A stretch of DNA of 64,000 bases from Cyclina sinensis. Lineage: Eukaryota; Mollusca; Bivalvia; Venerida; Veneridae. The stretch lies in the NCBI GenBank assembly GCA_012932295.1, contig JAAONU010000004.1:27692304-27756303 (forward strand), written 5' to 3'. The notes under the pieces are model-generated. The model was not told the origin of the DNA, searched no databases, and saw only the letters and a list, made by a program, of their open reading frames with translations. Shown piece by piece: positions 9,872 to 30,061 of this stretch; position 1 is the stretch's first letter; every line of letters starts with the position of its first letter. A program made the translations under genes and the position numbers.

Positions 9872-11965
9872 ATGGTTTACATGGCAGACGAGAAACAAAT
9901 AGCTGAAAATAAAGGCACAAATCTGTCTCAGTCAAGTGACAAACATGTTGAAGTTGAAGATGTGTTCATTGATGTCTTTGAAGATGAAGCAAAAAAGAAG
10001 TCAAGACATTCATTTCCACCCAGTGATAAAATGATGACAATGGCTGACGGGTTTGACGATACTTTTCAAAGACCAAGGTCTTTCTCTGATGCCTCAGTGA
10101 GTAGTGGAAGGCATGGCTTCAAAACAGTTAAAAATGTGTTTCATTTAAGAGGAATGACATCAATGAAAGTGTTTGTTAGAAGGGAAAGCCAGGTGATTTC
10201 AAAAACAGATGGACAAGGAAAATCTGCTGTAGCGGAAGGTGTACCCACAGGCTCACATGGTCATAGGTTTGAGGCTTTGTCAAAATCCTCAGAGAGGGTT
10301 TTAAGTTTAGACAATATTGCTGATAAACCTAGTGCAAAGCAGAGTGGTCCACCAAAGCCAAGGTTACCTTCAAACTACAGACAGTATTTAAATGAGCAGT
10401 TGAAACATTACAAGGAAGCGAGTGATAAGCAGGGAAATTCCGGTGGGAATTTGCAGGAATCTCATTCAAAAACTGATAACATGCATAGCAGGAATGTTGA
10501 AAGATTGGATAAGTCCAAAGATATAAATCATGGCGATAAGTCTAGATCTCAAGATATATTGAGTGAAAATAGAATGAAACCACCTGCTGGAAATCTGCGA
10601 AGAGGAAGATCGTCAGTTTCTGAGTTATCATTAAGACCAAACAGTGTCATTTACAGACACTTCGATCAACAGCTTCAGTCACAGTTGCTCAAAAAAGAGT
10701 TAGATAATCTAAGAGTGTCAAAAAATGTAAGGAGAAAGTCAGAAACAATGAGACAATGGCTTGAAAATGAGTCCAGGCGAAAGTCTGTGGGGGATCTACA
10801 TGTTAGATTTGCGGATGAAGTCATTAGTAAAGAAGGTAAGGGAGACTTAGATAGAGATACATTTAGGAGTAAAACACTGCCAAGGCAGTCTAAATCCTTA
10901 GATCTCATTGTATCACAAAACAAACCAGGAGACAAAAATTCAGACAGACCCAGTGCAATTGCATATCCACAAAGTGGAAACGGAGGTAGTATGCAGCCAA
11001 AAGATAATATTGCTGGAAGACTTAACACTAAGCCAGTGGAAGATAAAAATATCACTCATGAATCTAGAAGCCTTACCCTTACAAGGGGTCAAGGTAGGTC
11101 AAAATCTGCTACTGCTTTAGGAAGGAGCAGAGAGTTTTCCAGACAAGAGAGTGATTGGAAACCATTAGAAGCAAGTCAAAAGACGCAGCTGTCAAGATCA
11201 GCAACAAATCTTAGGAGGAAGCAGAACATGATTACAAAGTTCAACTACTCGGCTGTGGAACAAAAAAGAGAAAATGTTCGAACAAGATACCAGCAGAGTG
11301 ACAAAAAGGACAGAATAGAATCATTTTCTCCTGGATTAGATGATATTGACAAACCTGCAGAGACCAAAGAAGCTGAAGGTAACAGTGTGCAAAAAGCAGA
11401 CCTCAGAGTTGGTACAGGTAATAAAGTTTCTGCTGATCTCAGAGACAATAAAACCATTGGTGATAACAGATCTGATGAAGAAAAATACGCAGCTTTATCT
11501 CAAAGTAAAATTCTTCATTCTAAGTCATCGTCATGGGATACTCAGTCAAAGTATAATTCTTTGATAAAAAAACATGAAGAGACAAAATTGGACAGCAGAA
11601 GACAGGCTAAGCCTGGAACATCATATAAATCTGGTGCTAATATGTCTGAAAGAATGAATTTGACATTCGGATCAGACAAAAATGCTCAAAGGCTAAATAA
11701 TATTGGTGCTCAAGGTGTAAATAAACCCAAAGACAAAGACCTCAGGTCAAAAAAGTCTACAGACAATAATCTTTCTTATAGTGATAGTGAATGTGTAGTT
11801 TCTAAGGGTGCTAGAAGTGCTCACAATGTGCCAAATGTAGGATCAGGTACTATCCCCACTTCGCAGCAGGGGAAGATAGTGCTACGCCAGTGTAGAATCG
11901 GTTCCGATGTGGTTTTTGGATTAGTTGCAGTGCAGGATGGTGCTACAAAACCTTCATCAGTAAAG
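9872..11965 (+). CDS. PTPN4: PTPN4-like giant linker exon (disordered, Ser/Arg-rich)
   Basis: A 2.1-kb exon encoding 698 residues and ending at GTAAAG|GTGAGC (phase 0). This fits the phase-0 exon at 17685 and reads ...SSVK then [10 protein letters not shown]. The frame is open back to 9836, and 'cttcaacag' before GAGTGGGAT offers a possible 3' splice site at 9857 (weak pyrimidine tract). The start is therefore either ATG 9872 (G at +4), the second in-frame ATG at 9881, or an internal exon. The product is low complexity and highly charged, with many basophilic phosphorylation contexts (RRKSET, RRKSVGD, RSKSAT, RSRSFS-like RSFSDAS). These resemble the RSxS contexts through which human PTPH1/PTPN3 binds 14-3-3 proteins. 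The human linker between FERM and PDZ is far shorter, so this exon is a large expansion or an alternative N-terminus. Confidence 0.8.
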
Positions 11966-14900: not shown

Positions 14901-17900
14901 TTTGAGAATAATGATACTGAACATTTTATATGCTTTTTTGTGTAGCACTATTGTTCAAATATCTGAAACAAATCACCAAAAGGGTCATATCCGGAACCGA
15001 ACTGAACCAAAAGGTACCTGTATCATTGCAGCCCAAATAAATAATGACTGAATCAAAAACTGTACTTTCTAGTACACTTTTCCTCTGATCTTTGTGAGTG
15101 TGTGGGTGTGGGTGAGTGCATGGGTGTGGAAAACATCACAGTGAAAACTTATAAGATCTTTAATTTGCAAGATTTTTTAGGAGAGAAACATTTATCAGGC
15201 CATGCATTCAAAGGACTTTTACAGTAAGCAAAATAGCTTTACATTGCTGCACTTGAAAAAAGAAAAAAAGGAAAAAAAAAAAAAAAAGCAAAATCCAAAT
15301 TGCTTTCCTTTGAATATGAACTGTTAAAGGTTGGGAGAAATTTTTGGCAAGATCCCTTCATTGTAATACACTTTTTTTTATCAAATAAACATTTCTCAGC
15401 TGTGATAAACTTTATATTGACAGAGCAAACTTTGACAACCTTTCTTAAGTTTGGAATGTTTGCCCACACATTTTTATCAAGCAAAAAAGACTTGCCAAAT
15501 ATTTCTCAATATTCTTCAAAATTTATTGTACAGCTTTTTTTAGACATACTTTATTGTACCAGCTTAACATGTCAAGTTACAAAGCAGATAAGGAAGAGAG
15601 CCCCTTACTGTTAAATGATAATTTTTGGTAATGTTGAAATTTCTAGGCCAATGAGTTGCAGCTCAGATTTAAGCTCATCTGAGCACAAAAGTGTTGAGCT
15701 TTTGTGATTGACCTTTGATCGTCGCTGTCCGTCAAATGTTAGCAATTTGCTTCAAATGCTCTCTCCTAATCAATATAAATAATGGCTGATCTTGTTTATT
15801 TTCTATACGTACAAGTTGTTGTCTTCTGGCTTACTATGCTAGGCTCATTTTAATTTCAATCAGCTCTATTCCTTTAGCACTGTTTGATTAAAAATCATCT
15901 CAGAAATTCAAAACTTCTTTATAAACCAGTTGTCTCTAGTTGGTTGAATTATCTTTTTTCCCCCCAAGTTTATCATCAGACAACATGACCTTAGAATCAT
16001 TGTAAGTTCAAGGGTTAGAACTAAGTAATGTCATTAGCATTTTTCATTTGATTATGTATTTTCTTTATCTTAAAAAAGCATCGGGGATGAATAAAGAAGA
16101 CTGTATTAACCACTATTGAAGTAGAAATAAAATTTTAGTACTAGCGAAGGTTACGAAGACGATAGGACAGTGTGTTAATTGATTACAAATTGGTGTTTAA
16201 TGATTCGTCACAAGAAAAGTGCAATTATTTTGTCAGATAGAAGCAAACTGTCTGTCTGACGACAGATAATTATCAGTTAGTTGACGACAGTTTAAATTCA
16301 TGGTATCAGGTTTGATGTCAAGTTAAAAAGGAAAGGAAAGACAGGTTAAGAAAAAATACGTACAGGACTTGTTTCCATTGTTACGATTTGCCGTTTCAGC
16401 ATTTCTTCAATTTTACATTACATTCTAATCTTCAGTCTAGATTATTTATACATTTATTGATGATTATCACAAAAGGATATAAAAAGAACACTAACTTGAA
16501 TTGTTTTGTAGTTACACTTTTTTTGGTATCCACAAGATTGATACAGTATATTCCACTTTATTTAATCTCAGCTGAGTATTGTCAGATCTGTCTAGAGCAG
16601 GTCTGTGCTTAGACATCATAGGTTTCTGAGTCATTTCTGATTGTGACAGGTTACAGAAACAGCTTTCCATAGTGCTTTGCAATGTATGGAACACCACATA
16701 ACTTTAGAAGTTTGGTAGGGTATCAATAAAGAAAAAAATGTAGAGAATATATACTGGAAGGGTTTTAAATAGAACTAAAACTACAAACAAACAATAAGTG
16801 TAGAAAAAAAAATATAAAAAGGAAGATTATGTGAGATTTTGCAAAGTAAGATATGTGTGGGAGGAAAAGGCCAAGTGTGTGTGAGAGGGTTTGTTTTATT
16901 AATTCTTAGTAGTGAAGTATAGTTTCTGAATACTGCATTGTGTTTGATTTGTTATTTCTTGGCAATGAAGTACTGTATCTGATGATTAGTAATTACTCAG
17001 TGGCTCAAAGAAATACCAGACTATATTAGCTTGATTACCTTTCTGTTTGACAAACACCAGATATGTTTGTGTTGGAATGTCTCCATCTCAATGTAATGAA
17101 AGGAGGGGAGTATAAATTAAGACTTCTCAGGAACAGTCTTGCAGTGTCAGTTGTTGTGAACAATATTCAGTTCAACAATATATGTTGAAATTAGCAATGA
17201 AACTAGATACATTGAATGAAGCAGGATGCTTGAAAGATGCAGTTGCTTTGGGTTGTCCAGAGATACATGTTCTAATGTTCATTTATTATTGTTTCTATTA
17301 ATGACTAAAGTCAAGAATAAGTCAAAAGTTGAAGGACAAAGTCTTTTGAAATCATATCACATAAAATAGTTTCTGTGAGCATTCATGAAAGTTTTAACAA
17401 GGTATTTATAATAGAAACAGTTACAAGCACAATTACTTTGAAACGAGAAAAGGGTTGGTAGGCTTGCCTTTGTGAAAAAGAGAAAATGTTTTACAGTCCT
17501 ACAATATTTTTTATAAATACAGTAAATTAAATACATAAGTAAAACATGTTCTTGTGGGAGAGCAGTGGGTTTAGCTATTTTCTAGATAAGTTTTATCTTA
17601 AAGAGAAAGATTGGATTGTATTACTGGTTATGTCATGCACAAAGGTGCACATATATTATCATGTACATTTTTTGTTTGTTTCAGCCTAATGGCAATGGTT
17701 ACCTTGATGGACAGGGTTTGGTTACCATCCGGATGATACCGGATGAACAGGGAAGATTTGGCTTCAATGTTAAGGTAACATTGTAAATTGTAATATATTG
17801 AAAACATTTTAATGTAAGTTTGGTTTATTAACTATGGCTTTATTGACTATTAAGTAATACAGCATACTTGCGGTTTGCTTGACAGTAGTAAAAAAATTCA

Positions 17901-20900
17901 TGTTCAGGAAAGAGACTATTGCTATTTCAAATTAAAAGAATCCATTATGCAGAAGATTGTCTCTGTAGACATGCCTGTAAACTCCTAGCCATTTTTTGGG
18001 TTATTTTTGCTGCTGAGAGTTGCAGGCCCTCTCTGAATGTTGCATCCACAAGTAGTATCCTTACAGCTCTGTATTTGCATGTGAAGAATATTTAACAGTA
18101 CATTTTTACAGCAAGGAGAAATTGACTGTATCAATTACTGAAAAAAAAACAAGCACGTTTGTGCCATTGAACTTTGAATTAGATATCTTGTATGTTTTAA
18201 GTTTAAAACAAATCAGAAATGAGTAATTATGAATTACTTTCTGTTTATAACTGAATGTTTCAATGAATTTTATCTTCATGCTTACAGGGTGGGGCAGATC
18301 AGGGTATGCCAATTATTGTATCACGGGTGGCGCCAAACACTCCAGCGGACAACGCTATACCTCGCCTTAACGAGGGTGACCAGGTGCTCTTTATAAATGG
18401 CCGAGATGTCTCCCAACACACTCATGAACAGGTACTGTTAGGCTATGTGTTTCATCAAATAATTTCATGTTTTTTTTTGAGTAACAGATTCCTGTAACTA
18501 ATATGAACTACTTTTCGTAACTTCATTTTTGTTCTGACCAGTACTTCCTCAAGATAGGAGAATTACAATAGTAAATGTCAGATTTCACTTATAAGATTCA
18601 AACCTTACAGAAGTCAACACTGTTTGTACTGTGTACATCATGACTCCTCAAATATCAAATTCTTGGTCGTTTTGTAGTATTTATCAAACAGGATCTATTC
18701 TATCTTCATTTATTTCTATCTTTTCAATAATGCTTTATGTATTTCTTATAACTGTATACAGTTTAAGTAATTAAAGTACTCCATTTTAGCTCACCTGAGC
18801 CGTAGGCTCATGGTGAGCTATTAGGATTGATCAATGTCCGTCATCTGTCGTCCGTCCACACTTAGTTTGTTAACACTCTATTGGTCACAATTTTGCCTCA
18901 ATTGTCATGAACTTAGTCAGGATGTTTGTCTCAGTGATTACTCGGACGCATTCAAACATGGGTTATCTGGGTTGAAAAACTAGGTCACAGGGCCCAAAAA
19001 TAGAAAAACCTTGTTAACAATCTAGAGGCAATATTTTCAGTCCAAATATCCTCGAAATTTGTCAGAAAGGTTGTTTTGATGATTCCTAGCTCAAGTTTTA
19101 ATATGGGTCATCTGGGGTCAAAAACTAGGTCACAGAGCCCAAATATGGAAAAACCTTGTTAACACTCTAGAGGCTACATTTTCCGTCCAAATAACCTGGA
19201 AATTTGTCAGAAAGGTAATTTCTAATATTTCTATCTCAAGTTAAAACATGGGTCATCTGGGTTCAAAAACTAGGTCACAGAGCCCAAATATGGAAGAACC
19301 TTGTTAACACTCTAAAGTTACATTTTCTGTCCAAATAAACTGGAAATTTGATAGTAAAGTTGTTTCGATGATATGTAGCTCAGATTTGAATATGGGTCAT
19401 CTGGGATTAAAAAAATAGGTCACAGAGCCCATGTATGGGAAAACCTTGTTAACACTCCAAAGGTTACATTTTCAGGGCAAATAACCTCAAAATTTGTCAG
19501 AGAAGTTGTTTCAATGATTTCTAGCTCTGATTCAAATATGGGTCATCTGGGGTCAAAAACTAGGTCACAGAGCCCAAATATGGAAAAACTTTGTAAACAC
19601 TCTAGAGGTAACATTTTCAGTCCAAATATCCGGGACATTTGTCAGTAAAGTTGTTTCGATGATTTCTAGCTCAAGTTTGAATATGGGCCATCTGGGTTCA
19701 AGAACTAGGTCACAGAGCCCATGTATGGGAAAACCTTGTTAACACTCTAGAGGTAACATTTTCAGTCCAAGTAACCTGGAAATTTGTCAGAAAAGTTATT
19801 TTGGTAATTTCTAGCTCAAGTTCGAACATGAGTCATCTGGGGTCAAGAACTAGGTCACAGAGCCCAAATATGGAAAAACCTTGTTAACACCCTAGAGGTA
19901 ACATTTTCAGTTCAAATAACCTGGAAATTTGTCAGAAAGGTTGTTTTGATAATTTCTAGCTCAAGTTCGAATATGGGTCATCTGGGGTCAAAAAGTATGT
20001 CACAGAACCCAAATATGGAAAAACCTAGAGGTAACATTTTCAGTGCAAATAACCTGGAAATTTGTCAGAAAAGTTGTTTCAGTAATTTCTAGGTCAATTT
20101 CCAATATGGGTCATCTGGGGTCAATTAATCAGGTCCATAACAATTTTGTTAAAAGCAGTCATACTCGGGTGAGCGATGTAGGGCCATCTTGGCCCTCTTG
20201 TTTCAAGTTTGACCAATTACGAGTACATTATACATACTGTTTCTGGCAGGTCGTCATGTTTATACGAGCATCACGGGAAACTCATTCGGGAGAACTGATT
20301 TTAAAAGTTCGACCAAATGGTAAGTTTTGCATGCAGTTCAGTTCATTTCAGTTTCTTTCATTTCAATTTCGTCTTTTGTGCCATTTTTTCCATAGGTTGT
20401 GCTATTTATAAGAGAATCCAGAGAGTCACGGACTAAAGTGCTAAATTTGGTCGTAAGACCAAATGGTATGTATTAGTATATGTCATCAGGATAACGGGTG
20501 CCATAATATCATGACATTGTAGACATATTTCCATGTGTATGACTTGTAAAAAACCTTAATATCTATGTGCCTAATACTTATATTTATCTAACGGCATGGA
20601 CATTGTCATTACTTTCTGTAATATTATCCAGGGTAACTGAGAAAGGTTTTCAGTATTACCTCCCTTTTTAACATTACTAGTATAGAATTTTCCTGGGATG
20701 GCAAAGTATTTAAATTTAACATTCTGTCCTACATTTTTTTGCTGTTGAAGTTTACTGCAATATATCAGTGAAAAAGATTAAAACTTGTGATTCACCTGGT
20801 CATTTTGACTGTTACCAAAATGTTCATGTAATTTGAATTTGTCTTTTGTGTGGAGATAATAAAAAATTGTTTAAAGACTACCTTAACAGTCACTAACAGA

Positions 20901-23900
20901 CTAACTGCGAATCTGTAATAATATTGGGTTTATGTCAAAATTTTATGTGAACTTCCTTTTTGTCTGTTCATGCTGTAATTATATCCCCTAAACGAAGTTG
21001 AAGTGGGGGTGGGGGGGGGGGGGGGGGGGGTCAGTATCTTCACTATTTGCACAGTTATTGCCCTTTGTTGGTTTTTCTTGTCTGGAGCATAACTTGAAAA
21101 CTAATGGTTGGAATTCAATGCAGCTTCATGCAATGGTCAAGCACAGTGACAGAAGTACAGTGTACAAGAGCTATAACTCTGTATTGCCCTTAGTTGGTTT
21201 TCCCTGTCCAGAGCATAACTTGAAAACTAATGGTTGGAATTCAATGCAACTTCATATAATGGTCAACCACAGTGAAAGGAAATGCAGTTTACAAGAACCA
21301 CAACTAATTAATTGCCACAACCATAACTCTTTTTCAATTCTTTGACAAAGTATTCTGTTACTAATAACTTCCTCAGTTCCGAAGCAGTCTTGCAGGGGTA
21401 TTAATCACATTTAGTGATAGCTCTAGTTTTCTTCACTGGAACTCCTTGCAGAAGCTTTTTTGAATTTAAAATACACATAACAGCATCTTGCAGATTTTTT
21501 TTTTTTTAATTTGTAATGAATTACATTTTTTGAAGTTTATTTATATTTGGGTTTTTCTGTGAGCATAGTTGGTACAAGCTGTAATCTTTTTCTGTACATT
21601 TTACCTTGGTAGAATTTCTGTGTTTGGGAGTATGAGATATTGATTTTACTGGGCTTTTTACCTTACCATATATTTTTGCAGTATATTTTTTCTGTCTTTT
21701 CTTCTTTTGTCTGGGAAAATGTGTTTAATAACTTGAAAAATGAAAAGTTTTATCGACACTTGAAGTGCTTGTTATTTCATTCTGGTTAGAATAGATATAA
21801 ATGACATCAGTACTCGAGAGATTGTATAGGATGAGGGGAAATATGTCTGATATCTCTTTATCTGAAATTTCATCTTTAGTGTAAACATAATAATGAATGG
21901 CATGTTTGAAAACGGTTTTCAGGTTTTTGCATTTCACAACGGAAAATGCTAGCAAGCAGTGTTATTTGCACTATAATGTGTATTTCAGTCAGGCTTTAGT
22001 TACGTAAGTGTAAAGCACTTAAACAAGATTTCCAGAGGTCAGTGTCACATGTCCATGTAAAAATTCAGACCCTATATCAGCCAGTGTAACATGTCCATGT
22101 TATAAGACTTATGTATTTTCAGTAACTTATTGTGATTTTAATCAAGCTTGGCCCAAATACTGAAACTGTCAACTAGTTTTTAGGAAGGTGAGTCATGCAC
22201 AGTACCAAGGTCATCAGCTTAAAAGTCAAGGTCACATTTCAAAAGGTCAAGTTTCTGATATTGTTTTACTGCAGCCAGTGAAACTCTGCAGGACAATAAA
22301 ATCATGATGTGTATATTTCTACTTTATTGTCTTGATCCCGTCATTGAAATGTAGCGGAAGATATTTTATCTCAGAGATTTTGAGATTTATCAAGTGTGCA
22401 ACTTAACCATTATTGAGGGGGGACAGCCATAAGGTTTTAACTGACTTTGTATAAAGAAGAAGATAGAAACTTTTTCGATTTTACCCCTTGATATGTAGGA
22501 TGTTTTTATTAAGTGTAAGTACAGTGTGTTGTGTAATTACATTATGACTAATACTGCAGTGAAGCTTTTGACAGTGCAATAAATTTTGTGTGTAAATACT
22601 AACAAAGTATGACATTTAAGGGTGTAAACAATATAATATGATTAGGTTTTAACTATGTGCAGTATTTATGGCATGACAATAATCCATGAGAATCTGTATG
22701 TGTACAAATTCTTCTCCCCCTTTGGGGACCTCAAAATAGTGACTTTGTAACTGTATTTTTGTTTTATTATAAAAGAAGAAATTACTATATATATACAGTT
22801 TATTGTTTGGAGTCTTTGACAATGGAGTAACAATGTAACTTTTGACCGTTCCTGAAAACATTTAATTACCTGTGAAGATTACACAGACCCAACAAATTAC
22901 ATCAGAAAAAAATGGTAAATGATTCGACACTGTTAAGTTTACTTTAAAGCTGCTTTTAGAATCGATTATGTACTTAAAGGAGTTGATCTGCTGGGAACTT
23001 AGCATTAGAATAGTGCTGTACTGTGTGAATCCGTACTGTGTATACAGGTCTGTCTGAAAATGCAGAATAATGGTGAAATTAATTAGTATATGTGTCTGTT
23101 TATAACAAAAATTATACTTGTGACCAGAGTGTATAATGATCTACCTACACATACGTGCAGTCTGCATGGTCATGATCGATCTGTTCGCTATTGAGTCAAT
23201 GAATTTTTAATAAGTACCCCTTTTAGATTAGAAATGAGTCTGTCTAAAATAATTGACGTGTAAGTCCACTTATGAAATTTAGTAAGGTAAGAGTTGCGTT
23301 TATAAGTGGACTAGAAAATTAATGAAAATTCAAAATATAAAACTAGTTTTACTGATGTGTTTATAAAAGCATTAATCATGGCTGACAATTTGTTTTCTAG
23401 CGTATTCTGCCGATGACAATTCAGATGAGCCAGACTTTGTCTATGATCCTGAAACTCACCAAATATCCAGTGCCAACAATGGAGCCAATGCTTTAGATCT
23501 GTCCCTGAAATTGTTAGAAGAAAGTCTGGAAAGTGGGGCCGCTCTTGCTCAATTTGAAGTAAGTCATTTTTCCCAGTGTTCAGCTATAAAATCTGTGGAT
23601 GTTTCGTCTGCAGGACATTTCATTAATAATATAATCTTTCTAAGAAATTTCAATCAAGATGGTTTTATGTGATTTATCATACAGCTAGTAATTTACAAAT
23701 TCACTGCCAACTAATGTAGTTGGGGATCCAAAAGGCTACAAAAAGAACATAATATTATGCTGTCATTACTTGGGTTTATTGACATGAAGAAAGTCTTAAC
23801 TCTTATCATATATACTAGAGGGTTTAGTTTATACAAAATTTGGCATATAATTGTTTCTACTGAGTAAAGCAATGCATTGACACCAGCAAGTACAACCAGA

Positions 23901-26900
23901 TGATCTCATGTAATTCAGCACCAAGGAAGACATTGTTTCTTTAAAAAGGCTGTTTGATTTTATCACAATATTTTAGTTTATTTTGAATTTCAGTTCTGAA
24001 AGATATCAGTAAAATTGAATATAAGGTAATGCTTTGTTCATCAGGATTTCCATAGACAGCAATTTTACTGATCATCTTTTTCATTTCAGCAATTATATAG
24101 AAAGAAACCAGGCATGACTATGAATATAGCACGATTAGAAGCCAATGTACCAAAGAACAGATACAGAGATATATCACCGTGTAAGTATGTTTATTTTACT
24201 ATGGGATTGATCAGTTGTTTTGTGGTGACGTGGTTTGTCTGGTATTCCAGGGATTGCAAGTTTGATCCCACTCTCCTCTAAAATAATTAAATTTCTAATT
24301 GTCTTTCGGATGTGACATCTAACCTAGGTTTCATAAATTGGTGTTATACACTGATCATGCAAAAGATCCAGGAGTGTCTCTTTGCAACGGGATGGTTTCT
24401 GTATCTTGCAAAATCCGCAAGAACCTTAAATAACGAAACTCTTTAGGATGCGTCTGTCATGTGGGAAACCAGTACAGACGATATATAAACTCAGATAGTA
24501 AATAGATATTTGACTGCACATAGCTATCTTGAGACACACGGAGTTTTTAAATTTTTTGAAGCTTCTGTGTGTTTTTTGTTGAAACAGATGTTATTTATAA
24601 TATCTTTCTGGCACTTGACAGACATGTTTTTCAGAATAATTAACCTATTATTGTCAACTTCTGTAAATTTTAAATGACATTTGTGGCATATTCTGAAATT
24701 TCTAAATTTATTTTTTGTGCAAAAAAAAAAAGACATTTCTATTTAAAGAAACTTTAAATTTCTGCATACTTAATAAGGAAAAATTAATCATATAAATAGG
24801 TTGAAAAGAAAAATTGAGTTCAAAGAAAAGAAAGTAAGAACCAAACCTTTTGCCATTGTTTTTACCGAAGCACGCATAAGGTACACAGACTTATAACCCT
24901 GGTATTTTGATATTAACTTTTTTCTGTATTACAGATGATCAGACCAGAGTGATGATCAAAAATGGAAGTAACGGGGACTATATAAATGCAAATTATGTAA
25001 ATGTAAGTATTTGATGCAGTGCAGATCATGTTTAAGTCATTTAAGGGGATGCTTTCTTTGCCAAGTGTTACAGTGTTGATAAAAGTGGTCACTCTCTTTT
25101 CCCATCACTTATACTTCTTGTGTTGATCCCAGGTTCAGAATAGATTGTCTGAAATCCCTTATTTTTTTAAGTCAGAGGGACATAATTATGTCCACTTGTA
25201 CAAGATTTTAATGGAGTTGTAAATGGGGGTAAAGCCTTACAAGTGACATGTGTTTTTGCCTTACACTAGGCATTTTAAGGGCCTTGGAGTTGGGTTCTTA
25301 GTAACTTTTATACTTCCCTCTTACTTAAAATGCAGAATAACTTGATCCCTCATATCAAAGAGTAGGAACATTTATCATATGGTCAACAGTTATCTATGAT
25401 AGAAATCAGTATGAAATGTCTAACACAGAATTCAGCTAATGGAAACAAAACAATATTACATGTAACTGTTTCATGTAAATTAAAATGTATTTAACCATAT
25501 TAAAGCTACAGGTGTATGAATCAGATTATACCTGCATGAGGTAGCATCACTCTAACATCTTGGACATTTCATAAATCACTAAATGCCTCAATTAAATTTG
25601 AGTTAAAATGTCAGTGTACATGAACCGGTATGTTAAATGTCACAACAAAGTAAGATGGTGTATCATACACCATGCCCATGTATTACAGGTTTGTGGGGAC
25701 CACTATAGTGTATTGTTTCATTTCAAAAAGGTCATGCCAAATTCTACAGTGTTTATCTCATCATTTTCACTATTAATCACTATTAAACAAAGACAGCCTT
25801 TAAACATCTTTGTTTTATGAAGGTCACTTCAAACTCTCTTTTAAAGAATGAAATCGCTTTATAACAAAAACTTCATTAATAGAGAAAAGGGTGTCTATTT
25901 GAATCTAATATTTGCATGCCAAATGGCAGTTATAAATCTTTAAGAATTTTAAATAGATCTCAATATTTCAGTGCATTTAAGTCAGACCATCCCATATAGG
26001 CAAAAACAAGTCATTAAAATAGTTATATTAGCTCTATATTTCACAGTAGAAAGAAAACTGTGCAGGGGGGAAATAATCGCTTGAAAATGTATTGAAAATG
26101 ACAAGTTATATTTTAAAACCTAATGTCACAATTTGTTACATTATACGTTAATATCATATAACAGTTTTTCAAGTAAAATAATATCTGGAAGGCCATAGGA
26201 AAACATTGGTGCAAAAATTTAATGCTCAGTTTATGCATTCTTACTTGCCATCTGCTTTGTCAAACAATATATATAAGTGGTAACTTACCTTAAATTACTG
26301 TTCTATGATCTTGTGATTGTCCCAACCCAGCTAGCTCAGTTGGTAGAGCATTGGATAGTAAATCCAGGGGTTCTTGGTTCAAACCCTACCAGTGCAGGCT
26401 AGATTTCTTGGTAATACTTGATCCGCTCACCTCTGATTCAAGTAAGGAAGCAGTCAGTGGCCTGCAGAAAGATTGCTTAGTGAACTTGTTTGATACCCAG
26501 GAAAAGTTGCTAGCTAGACCGACCACTGGGATATGATCAGAAAGAGGCTGAAACAGGTGTTCAGCAGCAGTACTAACAAACAGATAAAAGATCTTGTGAT
26601 TGAGTTTTGTTTGTCTCAAATTCTGTGTTGCAGAGTAAATGTGGTAACCATTTTACAGGTATGGCCTTAATTTACGGATGTAACATGCAGAAATCACATC
26701 TCTTATGTTTTTTAATCATATATCACAATTTTAACATCATTACATTTATGCCATGTTTTCAGATGGAAATCCCAGTGTCAGGTATACTGAATCGTTACAT
26801 CGCTGCTCAGGGGCCATTACCAAGTACGTGTATAGACTTCTGGCAGATGATCTGGGAACAACAATCTACACTAGTCGTCATGCTTACAACCAAGGTGAAA

Positions 26901-29900
26901 ACCTAACATATGTCGTTATCTCCATCCAGTGCCTTGATCCATTCTGAAAATGTCTTTTTTCAACAAGTGGAATAAGAGTCTTAAAATAAACAAAACTCTG
27001 TTAACTGTAACTACGGTTACGAGACTGCAGGAATGAAATATCACTTTTCAAATACTTCAGCTTGTAAATGTTAATGATACTGGCCCATTGCAACCATTGC
27101 TGTGGGTTGAAATGTGTGGTGTAGGTAAAGAAAAGACATCATTTCTTCATAGATTGTTATTTCACATCGGTCGTTCCTAGCAACTTGCACTTATTGGACT
27201 GGAAAAAAATTTATACTTTTGTGATTCAGTTTTATTCATTTCAGCTACAGGTTACTTTTGTTCTTGGGTATCGTCGGTCTTGTAAATTTGAAATATGCTG
27301 GAATAATGTACATATGCGAAGTGCACGTGTATTCTTCTGTTAATGTTTTGAATTTGAAACACTATAGAAAAAAGAGATGTCATTCAGTTGATGTGCATTT
27401 CTGATATCAGAGTGGTCTATTTCAGGTGGAGCGTGGTCGTATAAAATGTCACCAGTACTGGCCAAACCTGTATGAGACATCCGACTACGGCCATCTGCAG
27501 ATCACATGTGTAAAAGAGGAGGAGACAGCCTCATTTGCATTTAGAGAATTTAATTTAACACATGTAGAGGTAAAGAAATGTATATTTTTCAGTTACAGGT
27601 ATATAGATATAACTAAAGATATCATTTGACTTTCATGTTCTGAGTCAAATATTGCAATTGGCTGTAACTGTAAGACTACCATAAGTCTTTAGAAATTTAT
27701 TTTTGACGTTGCATTTTGTCAGATACATGCAAAGACCACTGCTGTCAGCTTTGTAAGGCTTTTGCTGACTTAAGGATATTATTTAGTCTTGTCAATTACT
27801 CTTCCATTAGAAAATTTTGTAGTTCGTAGCAAAGTTGTTCAGAATGGGGGAAGAGTCTACTGATTAAAACCCTGAAATAGTTTGTATGTAAATTAACATT
27901 CTGACAATATAAAAATGATTTTTTCATCTTCCCAGTCCCAAGAAGAGAGGCATATATCTCACATGCAGTATATTGCATGGCCTGATCACGGGGTCCCTGA
28001 TGATCCTGCAGATTTCCTCGACTTTGTACAGAAAGTAAGGCAAAAACGGGTCGGTCTTGTAGAACCTTCAATAGTCCATTGTAGGTAAGTACCACCAGCT
28101 GTAGGTGATAGCTCCTTTGTACTTAATGTAAGAGTGTTTGAAAGAACGAACTTTTGCAAAAGTTTGTTATAGTAGAAACTAGAGAATCTCATCAGGCCCT
28201 AGGATTTCTTCCATAAATAATGCATACTAGGGAAATATTTGTCAGTCTCTTGTTTGGTATATGAAAACTAAGTCAGACTAATAATTAACCTGTTTTGCAA
28301 TTAAATAAGCACTGGTATTTATAAATTATCTAGTAAGTTCTGCAGTATATGGACAGGTCCTGAGCAGCCTGTGTTACAATGCACGTATTTTAAAAGCATA
28401 TAACAGATGTGCTGGTATACATGCCATAGATTTGAAAGTGATATTTTTTCAAACTTTTTTTTTCTTTTATACAAAACATTTTTTTATAGTTTCTGTTTTG
28501 TTCGAAAGCACATCCCTCTAAATTGAATTAACAGTAACAGTGTTAGTTTTCTTGCAAAATTCATGACAAGTTTTCACAGTTTTACAGAAATATGCTTATT
28601 TTCCTGTTAGGATTCTTGCCTTACCTGTGTTGTATTTGTGTATCAAGTATTATTTCTTGTGTCAGTCAGAATGTTTGTGAAGGTAATCAGTGTCAGACAT
28701 ATGTGTACAATATGTCTACATTGTAACTTTGTTTGTTTCAGTGCTGGTATAGGTAGAACTGGTGTATTAATCACCATGGAAACAGCAATGTGTCTTATAG
28801 AAGCCAATCAGCCAGTATATCCATTATCTATAGTTAGGCAGATGAGAGACCAGAGAGCCATGTTGATACAGACTCCAGTAAGTGTTACATGTGTCTGTAG
28901 TTAGGCAAATGCTGAAAAATTTACTTGTATCTACAATAAGGTAGAAGCTGGACTTAGAGGCATGTATGTTTCTACAGTTAGGTAGATTCTAAAAAAAAGG
29001 TACATGTATTTAGACTTAGTTTGAAGCTGAACTTAGTGGTAGATACATAGTTAGGCAGATGCTGAATTTCAAATCTTTCTTATTACATTAAGGGAGACAT
29101 GCTGTTTAGATATTTCAGTAATTAAGTTAGGCTGATATGGAGCTTGAAGTCATTCAGCACAGGTCATGAGAAGCCTTCAGTATTTAATTGAAGCTCAGCA
29201 GATTTTAGACTTTGTTGCTGAAATACAAATTTCTGTTAATGTGACCTACTTAGACATGCAAAAAATTATTGGTGTTATACAAATGTATATAAAGTTTCTC
29301 TTTTTCTTTCAGAACCAGTATAAATTTGTATGTGAAGCAATCATCAGATGTTACAATGGTAGGTGTATTTTTACTCCCTAGTAATAAAAGGGCAGATAAA
29401 TGACACATACATGTATACATACATATTTTATAAAATAACAACCAAAACATAATTTACCTCTCTTACCATGTAGAGATGTCTAATTGCTTATATCTTAGCT
29501 AAGACTTCTGGCTAATCAGATTTCAGACATTGTGGCTTTTTTCATCAGAGAACGATTGTAAACTGATGCAGTGAAAAAGCTAAAACTGAACACATAATGA
29601 CTGACTTTGCAGAATGTTTACAACTGTTTTCTAGTTTAATGTTTAACAGACTTGATGGTTTTGGTTCAGTATTTAGGATCATGCTGACAGTTTTCTCTAA
29701 ATATGCGTGTATTTCAAGCATTATTCAGTCTTATGGGTGTTATAACACATGTTTTGTTTTCCATATATTTTCAAGTAAATATTCACAGGAAAGGCGTCAT
29801 TGATTGCAATGGTTTCCTGAATTAATTCACAAGAAAAGAAATTATGCAAATAATCTGGTTTGGAACCTGAAAGATTATGTCTCATATAGAAAAACAGAAT

Positions 29901-30061
29901 TCATCAAATAATGAGCAAAAAAATGTACACGAAAGCTTGAAGATTTCTGGCTCTAGAATTTAGAAATAAGATATTTTTTCTTTGTTGTTTTTTAATTTTC
30001 TAATCCATTTTCTTTTCCAGAAGGAATAGTAAAACCATTGCCAGAATACCAGCAGAGATGA
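9872..30061 (+). CDS. PTPN4: PTPN3/PTPN4-type tyrosine phosphatase, C-terminal part (exons joined)
   Basis: Spliced product of the exons listed below: 1120 residues counted from ATG 9872. Order: long disordered Ser/Arg/Lys-rich segment (1-698), PDZ domain (about 708-797), short linker (800-852), PTP domain (about 853-1110) and a short tail ending [13 protein letters not shown]. The family dephosphorylates phosphotyrosine on membrane and cytoskeletal proteins; in vertebrates the PDZ domain binds partners' C-termini and restrains the phosphatase. All catalytic elements are visible: KNRY 874-877, WPD general acid Asp1014, [10 protein letters not shown] with Cys1046 and Arg1052, and Gln1090/Gln1094 of QTPNQY. 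It should therefore be active. The PDZ and PTP parts align throughout with human PTPN4 and PTPN3 as I remember them. The FERM domain usual in the family is absent here; it may lie upstream of the window, or this may be a FERM-less transcript. Two alternative exons exist for the PDZ end. Confidence 0.93.
14107..14316. mobile_element. MITE, TTAACCCTTA terminal-inverted-repeat family (diverged copy)
   Basis: About 210 bp starting 'ttaacttttatcctgctgg' and ending 'gcatgctaagggttaa'. The ends are imperfect inverted repeats. The interior ('ccaagatcagct', 'gtgcagtctgatcatg', 'ggacaagtcca') matches the better-preserved copy at 54112-54324. It lies in an intron of the phosphatase gene. Confidence 0.8.
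15671..15740 (+). repeat. Truncated 5' end of the hairpin-ended repeat
   Basis: 'agctcatctgagcac' followed by 'gagcttttgtgattgacc' and 'gtcgctgtccgtc' resembles the first 80 bases of the elements at 4564 and 18786. The rest of the element is not present. Confidence 0.5.
17685..17774 (+). CDS. PTPN4: PTPN4-like exon: start of PDZ domain
   Basis: 90 nt, phase 0 at both ends, preceded by 'gtttgtttcag' and followed by GTAACA. It encodes [13 protein letters not shown] and then [16 protein letters not shown]. This is the first beta strand and the FGF-type carboxylate-binding loop (RFGFNV) of the PDZ domain. Confidence 0.95.
18288..18431 (+). CDS. PTPN4: PTPN4-like exon: PDZ core
   Basis: 144 nt, phase 0 at both ends (acceptor 'tgcttacag', donor GTACTG). 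It encodes [19 protein letters not shown], then [17 protein letters not shown], ending QHTHEQ. The GD and INGRDV motifs are typical of this family. The last codons begin the alpha-B helix; its first-position His, which contacts ligand in class I PDZ domains, is in this exon. Confidence 0.96.
18786..20203 (+). repeat. Hairpin-ended interspersed repeat with about nine ~145-bp internal units
   Basis: It begins 'tagctcacctgagccgtagg' (imperfect palindrome) and ends 'gggtgagcgatgtagggcc' plus the 'atcttggccctcttgttt' hairpin tail. The interior repeats 'gggtcatctggggtc', 'aactaggtcacagagccc', 'aaaccttgttaacactctag' and 'aaataacctggaaatttgtc' with a period near 145 bp. It sits in the intron just upstream of the alternative PDZ exons and ends only 46 bp before exon A. 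Confidence 0.88.
20250..20319 (+). CDS. PTPN4: PTPN4-like alternative exon A: end of PDZ domain
   Basis: 70 nt, phase 0 to phase 1; acceptor 'gtttctggcag', donor ATG|GTAAGT. It encodes [14 protein letters not shown] then ELILKVRPN, the rest of the alpha-B helix, the loop and the last beta strand. This version is closest to vertebrate PTPN4 (HSGEL...VRPN). It is one of two tandem exons with the same length and phases. Confidence 0.93.
20396..20465 (+). CDS. PTPN4: PTPN4-like alternative exon B: second version of the PDZ end
   Basis: 70 nt, 76 nt downstream of exon A, with its own pyrimidine-rich acceptor ('ccattttttccatag') and donor ATG|GTATGT. It encodes [14 protein letters not shown] then VLNLVVRPN. 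It is the same length and phase as exon A, with 14 of 23 residues identical but most codon third positions changed. Either exon joins in frame to 18288-18431 upstream and 23401 downstream. Using both would shift the frame (140 nt). The helix and the RPN end are conserved, while the HSGEL loop/strand is replaced by a basic RTK sequence. Confidence 0.87.
21004..21310 (+). repeat. G-homopolymer followed by two ~126-bp tandem units
   Basis: A run of more than 20 G (one T interruption) is followed by two copies of a unit containing 'cataacttgaaaactaatgg', 'ttggaattcaatgca' and 'atggtcaa.cacagtga'. The style ('tggagcataacttgaaaact') matches the internal units of the repeats at 34225-34660. It is probably a fragment of one of those elements. 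Confidence 0.75.
23125..23295. mobile_element. Decayed MITE, TTAACCCTTA family
   Basis: Shares 'gatctacctacacatacgtg', 'cagtctgcatggtcatgatc' and 'gtaagtccact' with the copies at 14107 and 54112. Terminal repeats are badly eroded ('aatttagtaaggtaagagtt' at the right). Confidence 0.6.
23401..23558 (+). CDS. PTPN4: PTPN4-like exon: PDZ-PTP linker
   Basis: 158 nt, phase 1 to phase 0; acceptor 'ttttctag', donor GTAAGT. The split Ala codon (G|CG) follows the RPN of either alternative exon. It encodes an acidic linker ([17 protein letters not shown]) and then a helix ([15 protein letters not shown]) leading to ALAQFE. In vertebrate PTPN4 this linker couples the PDZ domain to phosphatase activity. 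Confidence 0.94.
24090..24180 (+). CDS. PTPN4: PTPN4-like exon: PTP domain start, KNRY loop
   Basis: 91 nt, phase 0 to phase 1 (acceptor 'tttttcatttcag', donor GTAAGT). It encodes [19 protein letters not shown] then [15 protein letters not shown] is the phosphotyrosine-recognition loop of classical PTPs. Confidence 0.96.
24220..24510 (+). mobile_element. tRNA-derived SINE, family 1 (old copy)
   Basis: Shares with 39131, 51681 and 60781 a head ending in a B-box-like 'gcaagtttgatccc' and a body with 'gttatacactgatcatgcaa', 'aggagtgtctctttgcaacg', 'ggatggtttctgtatcttgc' and a tail 'cgatatataaactcagatag'. It lies in a phosphatase intron. The copy is degenerate. Confidence 0.75.
24935..25002 (+). 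CDS. PTPN4: PTPN4-like exon: DYINANYV motif
   Basis: 68 nt, phase 1 to phase 0 (acceptor 'tctgtattacag', donor GTAAGT). It completes the Tyr codon split from the previous exon and encodes [19 protein letters not shown] then [12 protein letters not shown] is a hallmark of classical PTP domains. Confidence 0.95.
26307..26602 (+). mobile_element. tRNA-derived SINE, family 2, with 13-bp target-site duplication
   Basis: The head has an A-box-like 'tagctcagttggtagagcat' and a B-box-like 'ggttcaaaccc', as in a tRNA-Lys-type gene. The body contains 'cctgcagaaagattgcttag' and 'gatacccagg'. The direct repeat GATCTTGTGATTG flanks it at 26307-26319 and 26590-26602, marking a clear retrotransposition. 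A second member is at 45290-45582. Confidence 0.9.
26763..26894 (+). CDS. PTPN4: PTPN4-like exon: PTP core
   Basis: 132 nt, phase 0 both ends (acceptor 'catgttttcag', donor GTGAAA). It encodes [44 protein letters not shown]. The AAQGPLP.T..DFW motif is conserved in classical PTPs. Confidence 0.97.
27426..27569 (+). CDS. PTPN4: PTPN4-like exon: E-loop region
   Basis: 144 nt, phase 0 both ends (acceptor 'ggtctatttcag', donor GTAAAG). It encodes [20 protein letters not shown] and then [10 protein letters not shown]. ERGRxKCHQYWP is the form of the PTP E-loop found in PTPN3/PTPN4 proteins. Confidence 0.97.
27936..28084 (+). CDS. PTPN4: PTPN4-like exon: WPD loop and catalytic Cys
   Basis: 149 nt, phase 0 to phase 2 (acceptor 'catcttcccag', donor GTAAGT). 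It encodes [20 protein letters not shown] then PSIVHC. The general acid Asp of WPD and the nucleophilic Cys (last full codon) are both here. The following Ser codon is split AG|T. Confidence 0.97.
28742..28877 (+). CDS. PTPN4: PTPN4-like exon: rest of the PTP signature
   Basis: 136 nt, phase 2 to phase 0 (acceptor 'ttgtttgtttcag', donor GTAAGT). It encodes [20 protein letters not shown] then [15 protein letters not shown]. The phosphate-binding Arg and the conserved METAMCLIE helix are intact. Confidence 0.97.
29313..29358 (+). CDS. PTPN4: PTPN4-like exon: Q-loop end
   Basis: 46 nt, phase 0 to phase 1 (acceptor 'cttttttctttcag'-like, donor GTAGGT). It encodes [15 protein letters not shown], completing QTPNQYKFV, where the second Gln positions water during hydrolysis. 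Confidence 0.95.
30021..30061 (+). CDS. PTPN4: PTPN4-like last coding exon
   Basis: 41 coding nt after acceptor 'ttttcttttccag'. It completes a Glu codon and encodes [13 protein letters not shown] followed by TGA at 30059. The EG.VKPL tail matches the C-terminus of vertebrate PTPN4 more closely than that of PTPN3. Confidence 0.92.

What the first reader, a model, noticed from the sequence alone, without database searches (positions are those of the whole stretch)
20250..20465. Tandem, probably mutually exclusive exons for the end of the PDZ domain of a PTPN3/4 phosphatase
Two 70-nt exons, 76 nt apart, each with good splice sites and identical phases (0 to 1), encode two 23-residue versions of the same PDZ segment. 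14 of 23 residues are identical, and both end RPN plus a split G codon. Synonymous sites are heavily diverged while length, frame and key hydrophobic residues are kept, suggesting an old duplication held by selection. Using both exons adds 140 nt and breaks the frame, so only one can be used. The alpha-B helix positions that line the ligand groove are nearly unchanged; the loop and last strand switch from HSGEL to a basic RTK-containing sequence. In vertebrate PTPN4 the PDZ domain and the following linker restrain the phosphatase, so the switch may tune autoinhibition or partner choice. I know of no such exon pair in this family.
Basis: partly seen in the sequence, partly recalled or inferred. 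Interest (0 to 1): 0.88.

Follow-up and report, generated by a model that had tools for sequence, protein, structure and literature searches.

The report
Alternative exon pair in clam phosphatase
A clam gene for a signalling enzyme (a PTPN4-type phosphatase) carries two alternative versions of one 23-amino-acid piece of its partner-binding PDZ domain side by side, apparently so that each messenger RNA uses one or the other, and the predicted protein of a related clam is closer to the unusual version.

Summary
Exons A (20250-20319) and B (20396-20465) are 70 nt each, 76 nt apart, in the same phase, and encode homologous 23-residue ends of the PDZ domain of a PTPN3/4 phosphatase (14 of 23 residues, 42 of 70 nt identical). 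A-only and B-only messages are open; A+B and skipping both hit stops. Synonymous sites are saturated (pS 0.85) and dN is 0.30: an old pair held by selection. A is the canonical exon (22 of 23 in Mercenaria). New here: annotated PTPN4 proteins of Mya arenaria carry a segment closer to B (18 of 23) than to A (16 of 23), sharing RTK and LNL; Dreissena's tie is weak (15 against 14). An origin before the Venerida/Myida split is favoured, not proven (AU p 0.05-0.15 against the alternatives, 23 columns). Likely branch adenosines of the 76-nt intron lie under 50 nt from exon A's donor, which offers a steric exclusion mechanism. A second copy of the gene in this assembly, probably the other haplotype, has both exons unchanged. 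No RNA evidence was available. New instance of a known kind.

The parts
20250..20319 (+). Exon A, canonical version: [23 protein letters not shown] + first base of a split codon
   Evidence: 22 of 23 identical to Mercenaria P0123/P0124
20396..20465 (+). Exon B, alternative version: [23 protein letters not shown] + first base of a split codon
   Evidence: 18 of 23 to Mya P0125/P0126
20320..20395 (+). 76-nt intervening intron, GT-AG; last internal AG at intron 31-32; YTNAY branch-like matches with A at 26 and 41, further A's at 46 and 47; U6 run at 20384
   Evidence: the other 10 intervals between mapped exons are 366-2935 nt
20328..20333 (+). TGCATG, an RBFOX-type hexamer (motif recalled), 9 nt after exon A's 5' splice site and upstream of exon B
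   Evidence: 0.037 expected per 76 nt at this window's rate; chosen after looking
18288..18431 (+). Shared upstream PDZ exon, 48 aa, ends HTHEQ at the start of helix alpha2, phase 0
23401..23558 (+). Shared downstream exon: PDZ-PTP linker, supplies the other two bases of the split codon
17685..17774 (+). First PDZ exon (PNGNGY...GFNVK)
24090..29358 (+). PTP-domain exons E5-E11 (24090-24180, 24935-25002, 26763-26894, 27426-27569, 27936-28084, 28742-28877, 29313-29358)
   Evidence: Pfam Y_phosphatase 277 bits
30014..30058 (+). C-terminal coding exon ([13 protein letters not shown]); range of the tblastn hit, exact exon start not fixed
9872..11965 (+). Long first coding exon (698 codons) of a FERM-less isoform of the same gene, in frame with 17685; taken one base short (to 11964)
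   Evidence: 61% identical to Mercenaria LOC123530832 isoform X1

Best explanation
A and B are an ancient tandem exon duplication in a PTPN4-like phosphatase gene of a venerid clam, used one at a time. Shown: two intact homologous exons in the same phase, strong purifying selection, an open frame only if exactly one is used, and a B-like segment in predicted Mya proteins. Inferred mechanism of choice: exon A is not spliced directly to exon B because the plausible branch adenosines of the 76-nt intron (41, 46 or 47 nt from A's donor, or 26 nt if the one before the last internal AG is used) are too close to that donor for U1 and U2 to act together. The machinery therefore joins E2-A-E4 or E2-B-E4, and any A+B or double-skip product is frameshifted and would go to nonsense-mediated decay. 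A TGCATG between the two may let an RBFOX-type factor favour A and repress B. Inferred effect: both versions keep the ligand-contacting helix residues. B replaces the alpha2-beta6 loop and last strand (THSGELILK to SRTKVLNLV), including the site equivalent to PTPN3 E589, which responds to ligand in NMR. The likeliest consequence is changed coupling of the PDZ to the linker and phosphatase, or changed surface charge, rather than a new peptide class.
For: Anatomy and frames. Divergence pattern, simulation and intron geometry. B scores as well as A against Pfam PDZ (74.6 against 72.1 bits) and still matches the PTPN4 PDZ first in the PDB (E 3.3e-27 with B, 2.3e-31 with A). Mya 18 of 23 to B; N at position 17 in 0 of 71 other unique segments, K at 14 in 2 of 71. 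Mya proteins hit exon B better than exon A by tblastn (E 1.3e-4 against 0.003), Mercenaria the reverse (about 0.08 against 2e-8). A fixed-topology test prefers B with Mya+Dreissena by 6-10 log units. AlphaFold models of a B-like protein (Dreissena) and an A protein (Tegillarca) both form the helix and strand over this segment, block pLDDT 89-96. Passages: PDZ inhibits the phosphatase in cis through the linker (PMC5554198); residue contacts (PMC10185773, PMC6520365); branch-point steric model (PMC7969005).
Against: No RNA data at all. Protein search results are clustered at 90%, so no species was seen to carry both forms; the only genome read with both exons is this one. The AU test does not reject the alternatives at 5% (p 0.051-0.146). 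RTK at this loop also occurs in sea urchin PTPN4 (P0027), so convergence is possible, and Dreissena's tie to B is weak (15 against 14). B scores lower than A against human PTPN4 (96.5 against 109.8 bits). The 50-nt threshold comes from vertebrate work; short introns are spliced routinely in some invertebrates (recalled), and the clam's intron-length distribution was not measured. TGCATG was picked after looking. The search for short fragments found 9 proteins, none with B. Zero changes in B between the two gene copies is weak evidence: about 1 was expected at the local mismatch rate.
Confidence: 0.78

Rival explanations
1. B is a retained but little-used exon: an old duplicate spliced in rarely, or mainly to make frameshifted A+B messages that lower the protein level (poison-exon regulation).
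For: Any A+B message stops early. The Mercenaria and Ruditapes representatives (3 of 3) use A, and none of 9 fragment hits has B. B's donor is a little weaker than A's (6 against 7 of 9 U1 matches).
Against: A poison exon need not keep a PDZ-compatible reading frame with dN 0.30 at saturated synonymous sites or score 74.6 bits as a PDZ. A B-like version is the coding one in Mya proteins.
Confidence: 0.14
2. The Mya/Dreissena resemblance is convergence: the duplication is confined to Venerida, and Myida changed their only exon independently. The pair itself would still be real.
For: 23 columns only; AU p 0.051-0.146 for the two other topologies. RTK is also found in sea urchin. Dreissena matches A nearly as well as B.
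Against: Mya shares four of nine diagnostic residues with B; none of the other 72 unique segments has more than three. Log-likelihood is 6-10 units worse.
Confidence: 0.25
3. B is a decayed pseudo-exon, conserved by chance.
For: No RNA evidence.
Against: 0 of 60,000 neutral simulations at 1.0 substitution per site keep frame, splice dinucleotides and identity. Both copies of the gene in the assembly keep B intact.
Confidence: 0.02

Closest known systems
Mutually exclusive tandem exons with a branch point too near the upstream donor (alpha-tropomyosin; OGDH exons 4a/4b, PMC7969005 passages)
   Same: Homologous adjacent exons, short intervening intron, likely branch point under about 50 nt from the donor, U run after it
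   Different: Different gene and phylum; the branch point here is predicted from sequence, not mapped
PTPN3/PTPN4 FERM-PDZ-PTP phosphatases of vertebrates and other animals
   Same: Same domain order: exons matching Mercenaria isoform X5 residues 1-576, FERM included, lie 5-73 kb upstream of the window; exon A is the orthologous segment
   Different: No second version of this PDZ exon was seen in the listings and passages
Mapk14/Mapk9/Mapk10 mutually exclusive exons in kinase domains (mentioned in PMC1431701, passages)
   Same: Exclusive exons swap a piece inside a signalling enzyme's folded domain
   Different: There the catalytic domain is changed; here the regulatory PDZ domain

Membership tests
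Mutually exclusive exon pair | Adjacent, homologous, length-matched exons of equal phase | tested here: met
   70 and 70 nt, phase 0 to 1, 14 of 23 aa
Mutually exclusive exon pair | Only one-exon messages keep the frame | tested here: met
   A and B open, A+B and neither stop
Mutually exclusive exon pair | RNA shows either exon but not both | not testable with these tools
   no reads available
Branch-point steric exclusion | Branch adenosine under about 50 nt from the upstream donor | tested here: inconclusive
   sequence offers 26, 41, 46 or 47 nt; not mapped, and the clam threshold is unknown
PTPN3/PTPN4 family | FERM, PDZ and PTP domains in one gene | tested here: met
   Pfam PDZ and Y_phosphatase; upstream exons matching the FERM-bearing Mercenaria isoform X5 at 85-100% apart from one small exon
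PTPN3/PTPN4 family | Class I PDZ histidine (PTPN3 H572) kept | tested here: met
   HTHEQ in the shared exon 18288-18431; residue role from PMC10185773 passages

The most novel reading that the evidence does not exclude
The pair arose before venerid and myid clams split. Venerids keep both and switch between them by branch-point exclusion, while Myida (Mya, Dreissena) replaced the canonical segment with the B version altogether. A whole lineage would thus have swapped one end of the PDZ domain of a conserved phosphatase through an alternative-splicing intermediate.
Probability: 0.35. Interest if true: 0.65.

Novelty: new member of a known kind. Interest (0 to 1): 0.55.

Why it matters
In vertebrate PTPN4 the PDZ domain restrains the phosphatase through the linker and ligand binding relieves this, but no stable PDZ-phosphatase interface was seen by NMR (PMC5554198, passages). 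Two natural PDZ versions that differ mainly in the alpha2-beta6 loop and last strand, with the peptide-binding residues kept, are a ready-made test of whether that surface carries the allosteric signal. The Venerida/Myida contrast also offers a possible case of an alternative exon that became the sole exon in a lineage.

Tried and rejected
A weak tblastn hit at 22884-22967 to the linker exon (E 0.056, with a stop and a gap) was set aside as chance. A hit to residues 287-331 of Mercenaria X5 upstream of the window proved to be a small exon (VTQMSVKRVLPPRLTK), not a second duplicated exon. A third protein search, for short fragments, gave 9 proteins among 42 candidates, none with B. Of only the 120 listed of 309 hits could be examined; all 98; second isoforms hidden by 90% clustering could not be seen. 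In the residue counts 178 of 209 proteins were kept and 31 dropped for indels, no anchor or an atypical end of the segment; dropped rows include Solemya, vertebrate PTPN3 and several nematodes and ticks. Literature searches, full text of the held library: PTPN4 + mutually exclusive exons, 0 papers; Ptpmeg + alternative splicing, 7; mutually exclusive exons + PDZ domain, 18; exon duplication and mollusc terms, 48 with 20 listed; a four-term phosphatase search, 4; PTPN4 + bivalve, 1; bivalve terms, 2,981 with 15 listed; PTPN3 + mutually exclusive exon, 2. From these I read passages of PMC1431701 (0 mentions of Ptpn3 or Ptpn4), PMC4138107, PMC6520365 and PMC7969005; the rest were seen as listings only. 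RNA docking/selector structures were not tested, because no related DNA was available for covariation. The PDZ part of the models was not searched on its own against the PDB.

Full report
What is there. The window holds the 3' part of a PTPN3/4-type phosphatase gene on the + strand. Exons were placed by tblastn and splice sites: 17685-17774, 18288-18431, A 20250-20319, B 20396-20465, 23401-23558, then seven PTP exons to 29358 and a C-terminal exon at about 30014-30058. The spliced product has Pfam PDZ and Y_phosphatase domains with either exon. Exons matching residues 1-576 of the FERM-bearing Mercenaria isoform X5 lie 5-73 kb upstream of the window, and a 698-codon exon at 9872-11965 begins a FERM-less isoform also known from Mercenaria. 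Leaving out the 23-residue segment, the nearest proteins are Mercenaria (97.5% over 356 columns) and Ruditapes (96.6% over 350), so this is a venerid clam. The assembly is 902.86 Mb, and the Cyclina sinensis assembly is reported as 902.8 Mb of contigs with 1.53% heterozygosity (PMC7251785, passages). That species is a guess from size only.

The pair. A and B are both 70 nt, phase 0 to 1, separated by a 76-nt GT-AG intron; the other 10 intervals between mapped exons in the window are 366-2935 nt. Nucleotide identity is 42 of 70, by codon position 15, 17 and 9 of 23. pS is 0.85 and dN 0.30. With A or B alone the frame runs through to the end of the assembled coding region (409 residues); with both or neither it stops within a few dozen codons. 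Splice sites of both are within the range of the gene's other exons: 7 (A) and 6 (B) of 9 U1 matches, 10 (A) and 13 (B) of 16 pyrimidines. A neutral copy would not look like this (0 of 60,000 simulations at 1.0 substitution per site).

A second copy. The exon pair was found twice in the genome, 1.53 Mb apart on the same contig and strand (such counts are lower bounds). The copies are collinear over the gene at roughly 90-99% per long aligned block, lower inside repeats. This looks like an unmerged second haplotype rather than a gene duplication, though it was not settled. Across the 13 exons compared the copies differ at 17 of 3391 positions; A and B differ at none, the intron between them at 1 of 76. 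Against a local mismatch rate near 1.5% (48 mismatches in a 3187-column block) this is only weak evidence of constraint on B alone.

Relatives. Three protein searches were run. In Mercenaria (P0123, P0124) and Ruditapes (P0013) the representative proteins carry A. In Mya arenaria two representatives (P0125, isoform X2; P0126, isoform X5) carry VVKFIRLSRETRTKELNLIVRPN: 18 of 23 to B, 16 of 23 to A. Dreissena (P0003) carries VVKFIRQSRDSHAKDLHLIVRPN: 15 to B, 14 to A. Of 209 proteins, 178 gave an alignable segment (31 dropped), 73 of them unique; at the nine positions where A and B differ Mya has four B residues, and no other unique segment has more than three. The three-B segments include sea urchin PTPN4 with the same RTK, so part of the resemblance could be convergent. 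On the rest of the protein the five clams form a group (100/100) with Mya and Dreissena sister (99/99). With a species tree fixed by me, joining B to Mya+Dreissena is better by 10.2 (LG), 5.9-6.0 (LG+G4) or 6.1 (JTT+G4) log units; AU p for the alternatives is 0.051-0.146. An origin before the Venerida/Myida split is favoured, not proven. Whether Mya or Dreissena still have an A exon could not be seen.

Structure. In the model of the Dreissena protein the segment is residues 128-150: most of helix 125-137, the loop, and strand 143-148. The A-type Tegillarca model has the same elements, helix 77-89 and strand 95-100. Foldseek's top PDB match for the Dreissena model is the PTPN4 phosphatase domain. 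Numbering by PTPN3, position 1 is V575, position 6 K580 (water-mediated contact to the ligand's last residue), position 15 E589 (perturbed on ligand binding) and position 16 L590 (contacts F521 of the GLGF motif) (PMC10185773 and PMC6520365, passages; the numbering match is mine). The equivalents of H572 and D573, which bind ligand positions -2 and -4 in PTPN3, are H and E in the shared exon. B keeps positions 1, 2, 4, 5, 6, 8-10, 16, 18 and 20-23 and changes 3 (M to L), 7 (A to E), 11-15 (THSGE to SRTKV), 17 (I to N) and 19 (K to V). This points to the surface beside the groove rather than to peptide class; that step is inference.

How exclusion would work. In the 76-nt intron the last AG before the acceptor is at 31-32. 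Branch-like YTNAY matches put the adenosine at 41 (TTCAT, 35 nt from the acceptor) and at 26 (before that AG); other adenosines in the zone are at 46 and 47, and the next is 12 nt from the acceptor. All are under the approximately 50-nt donor-to-branch threshold cited for OGDH and other exclusive exons, and a U6 run follows (PMC7969005, passages). Frame loss of A+B gives a second safeguard. TGCATG at 20328 is suggestive only.

Judgement. Exclusive use in RNA and the functional switch remain inferences. The kind of thing is known; this member was not found in the literature searched (listings and passages only).

Noticed in passing
9872-11965: A 698-codon exon encodes the N-terminal part of a FERM-less isoform of the same gene (61% identical to Mercenaria LOC123530832 isoform X1); no Pfam domain reaches its cut-off in the reading frame around it.
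   Followed up: partly
18910-20135: Seven to eight tandem copies of a 145-nt unit fill most of the intron before exon A and end about 115 nt upstream of it; the second gene copy has matching repeats at about 82-92% identity.
   Followed up: partly
20250-20465; genome C13:29241120: The whole gene is present twice on one contig 1.53 Mb apart, collinear at roughly 90-99% identity per long block, probably an unmerged haplotype in the assembly.
   Followed up: partly
20304-20306 (position 19 of exon A): Venerid exon A has lysine ([16 protein letters not shown]) where the other molluscs compared have isoleucine or valine.
   Followed up: no
L012:5390-5524 (about 44.6 kb upstream of the window): A small exon in the FERM region (VTQMSVKRVLPPRLTK) between two regular exons, present in Mercenaria isoform X5; whether it is optional was not tested.
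   Followed up: partly
22884-22967: Weak same-strand similarity to the linker exon 23401-23558 with a stop and a gap (E 0.056); probably chance.
   Followed up: partly
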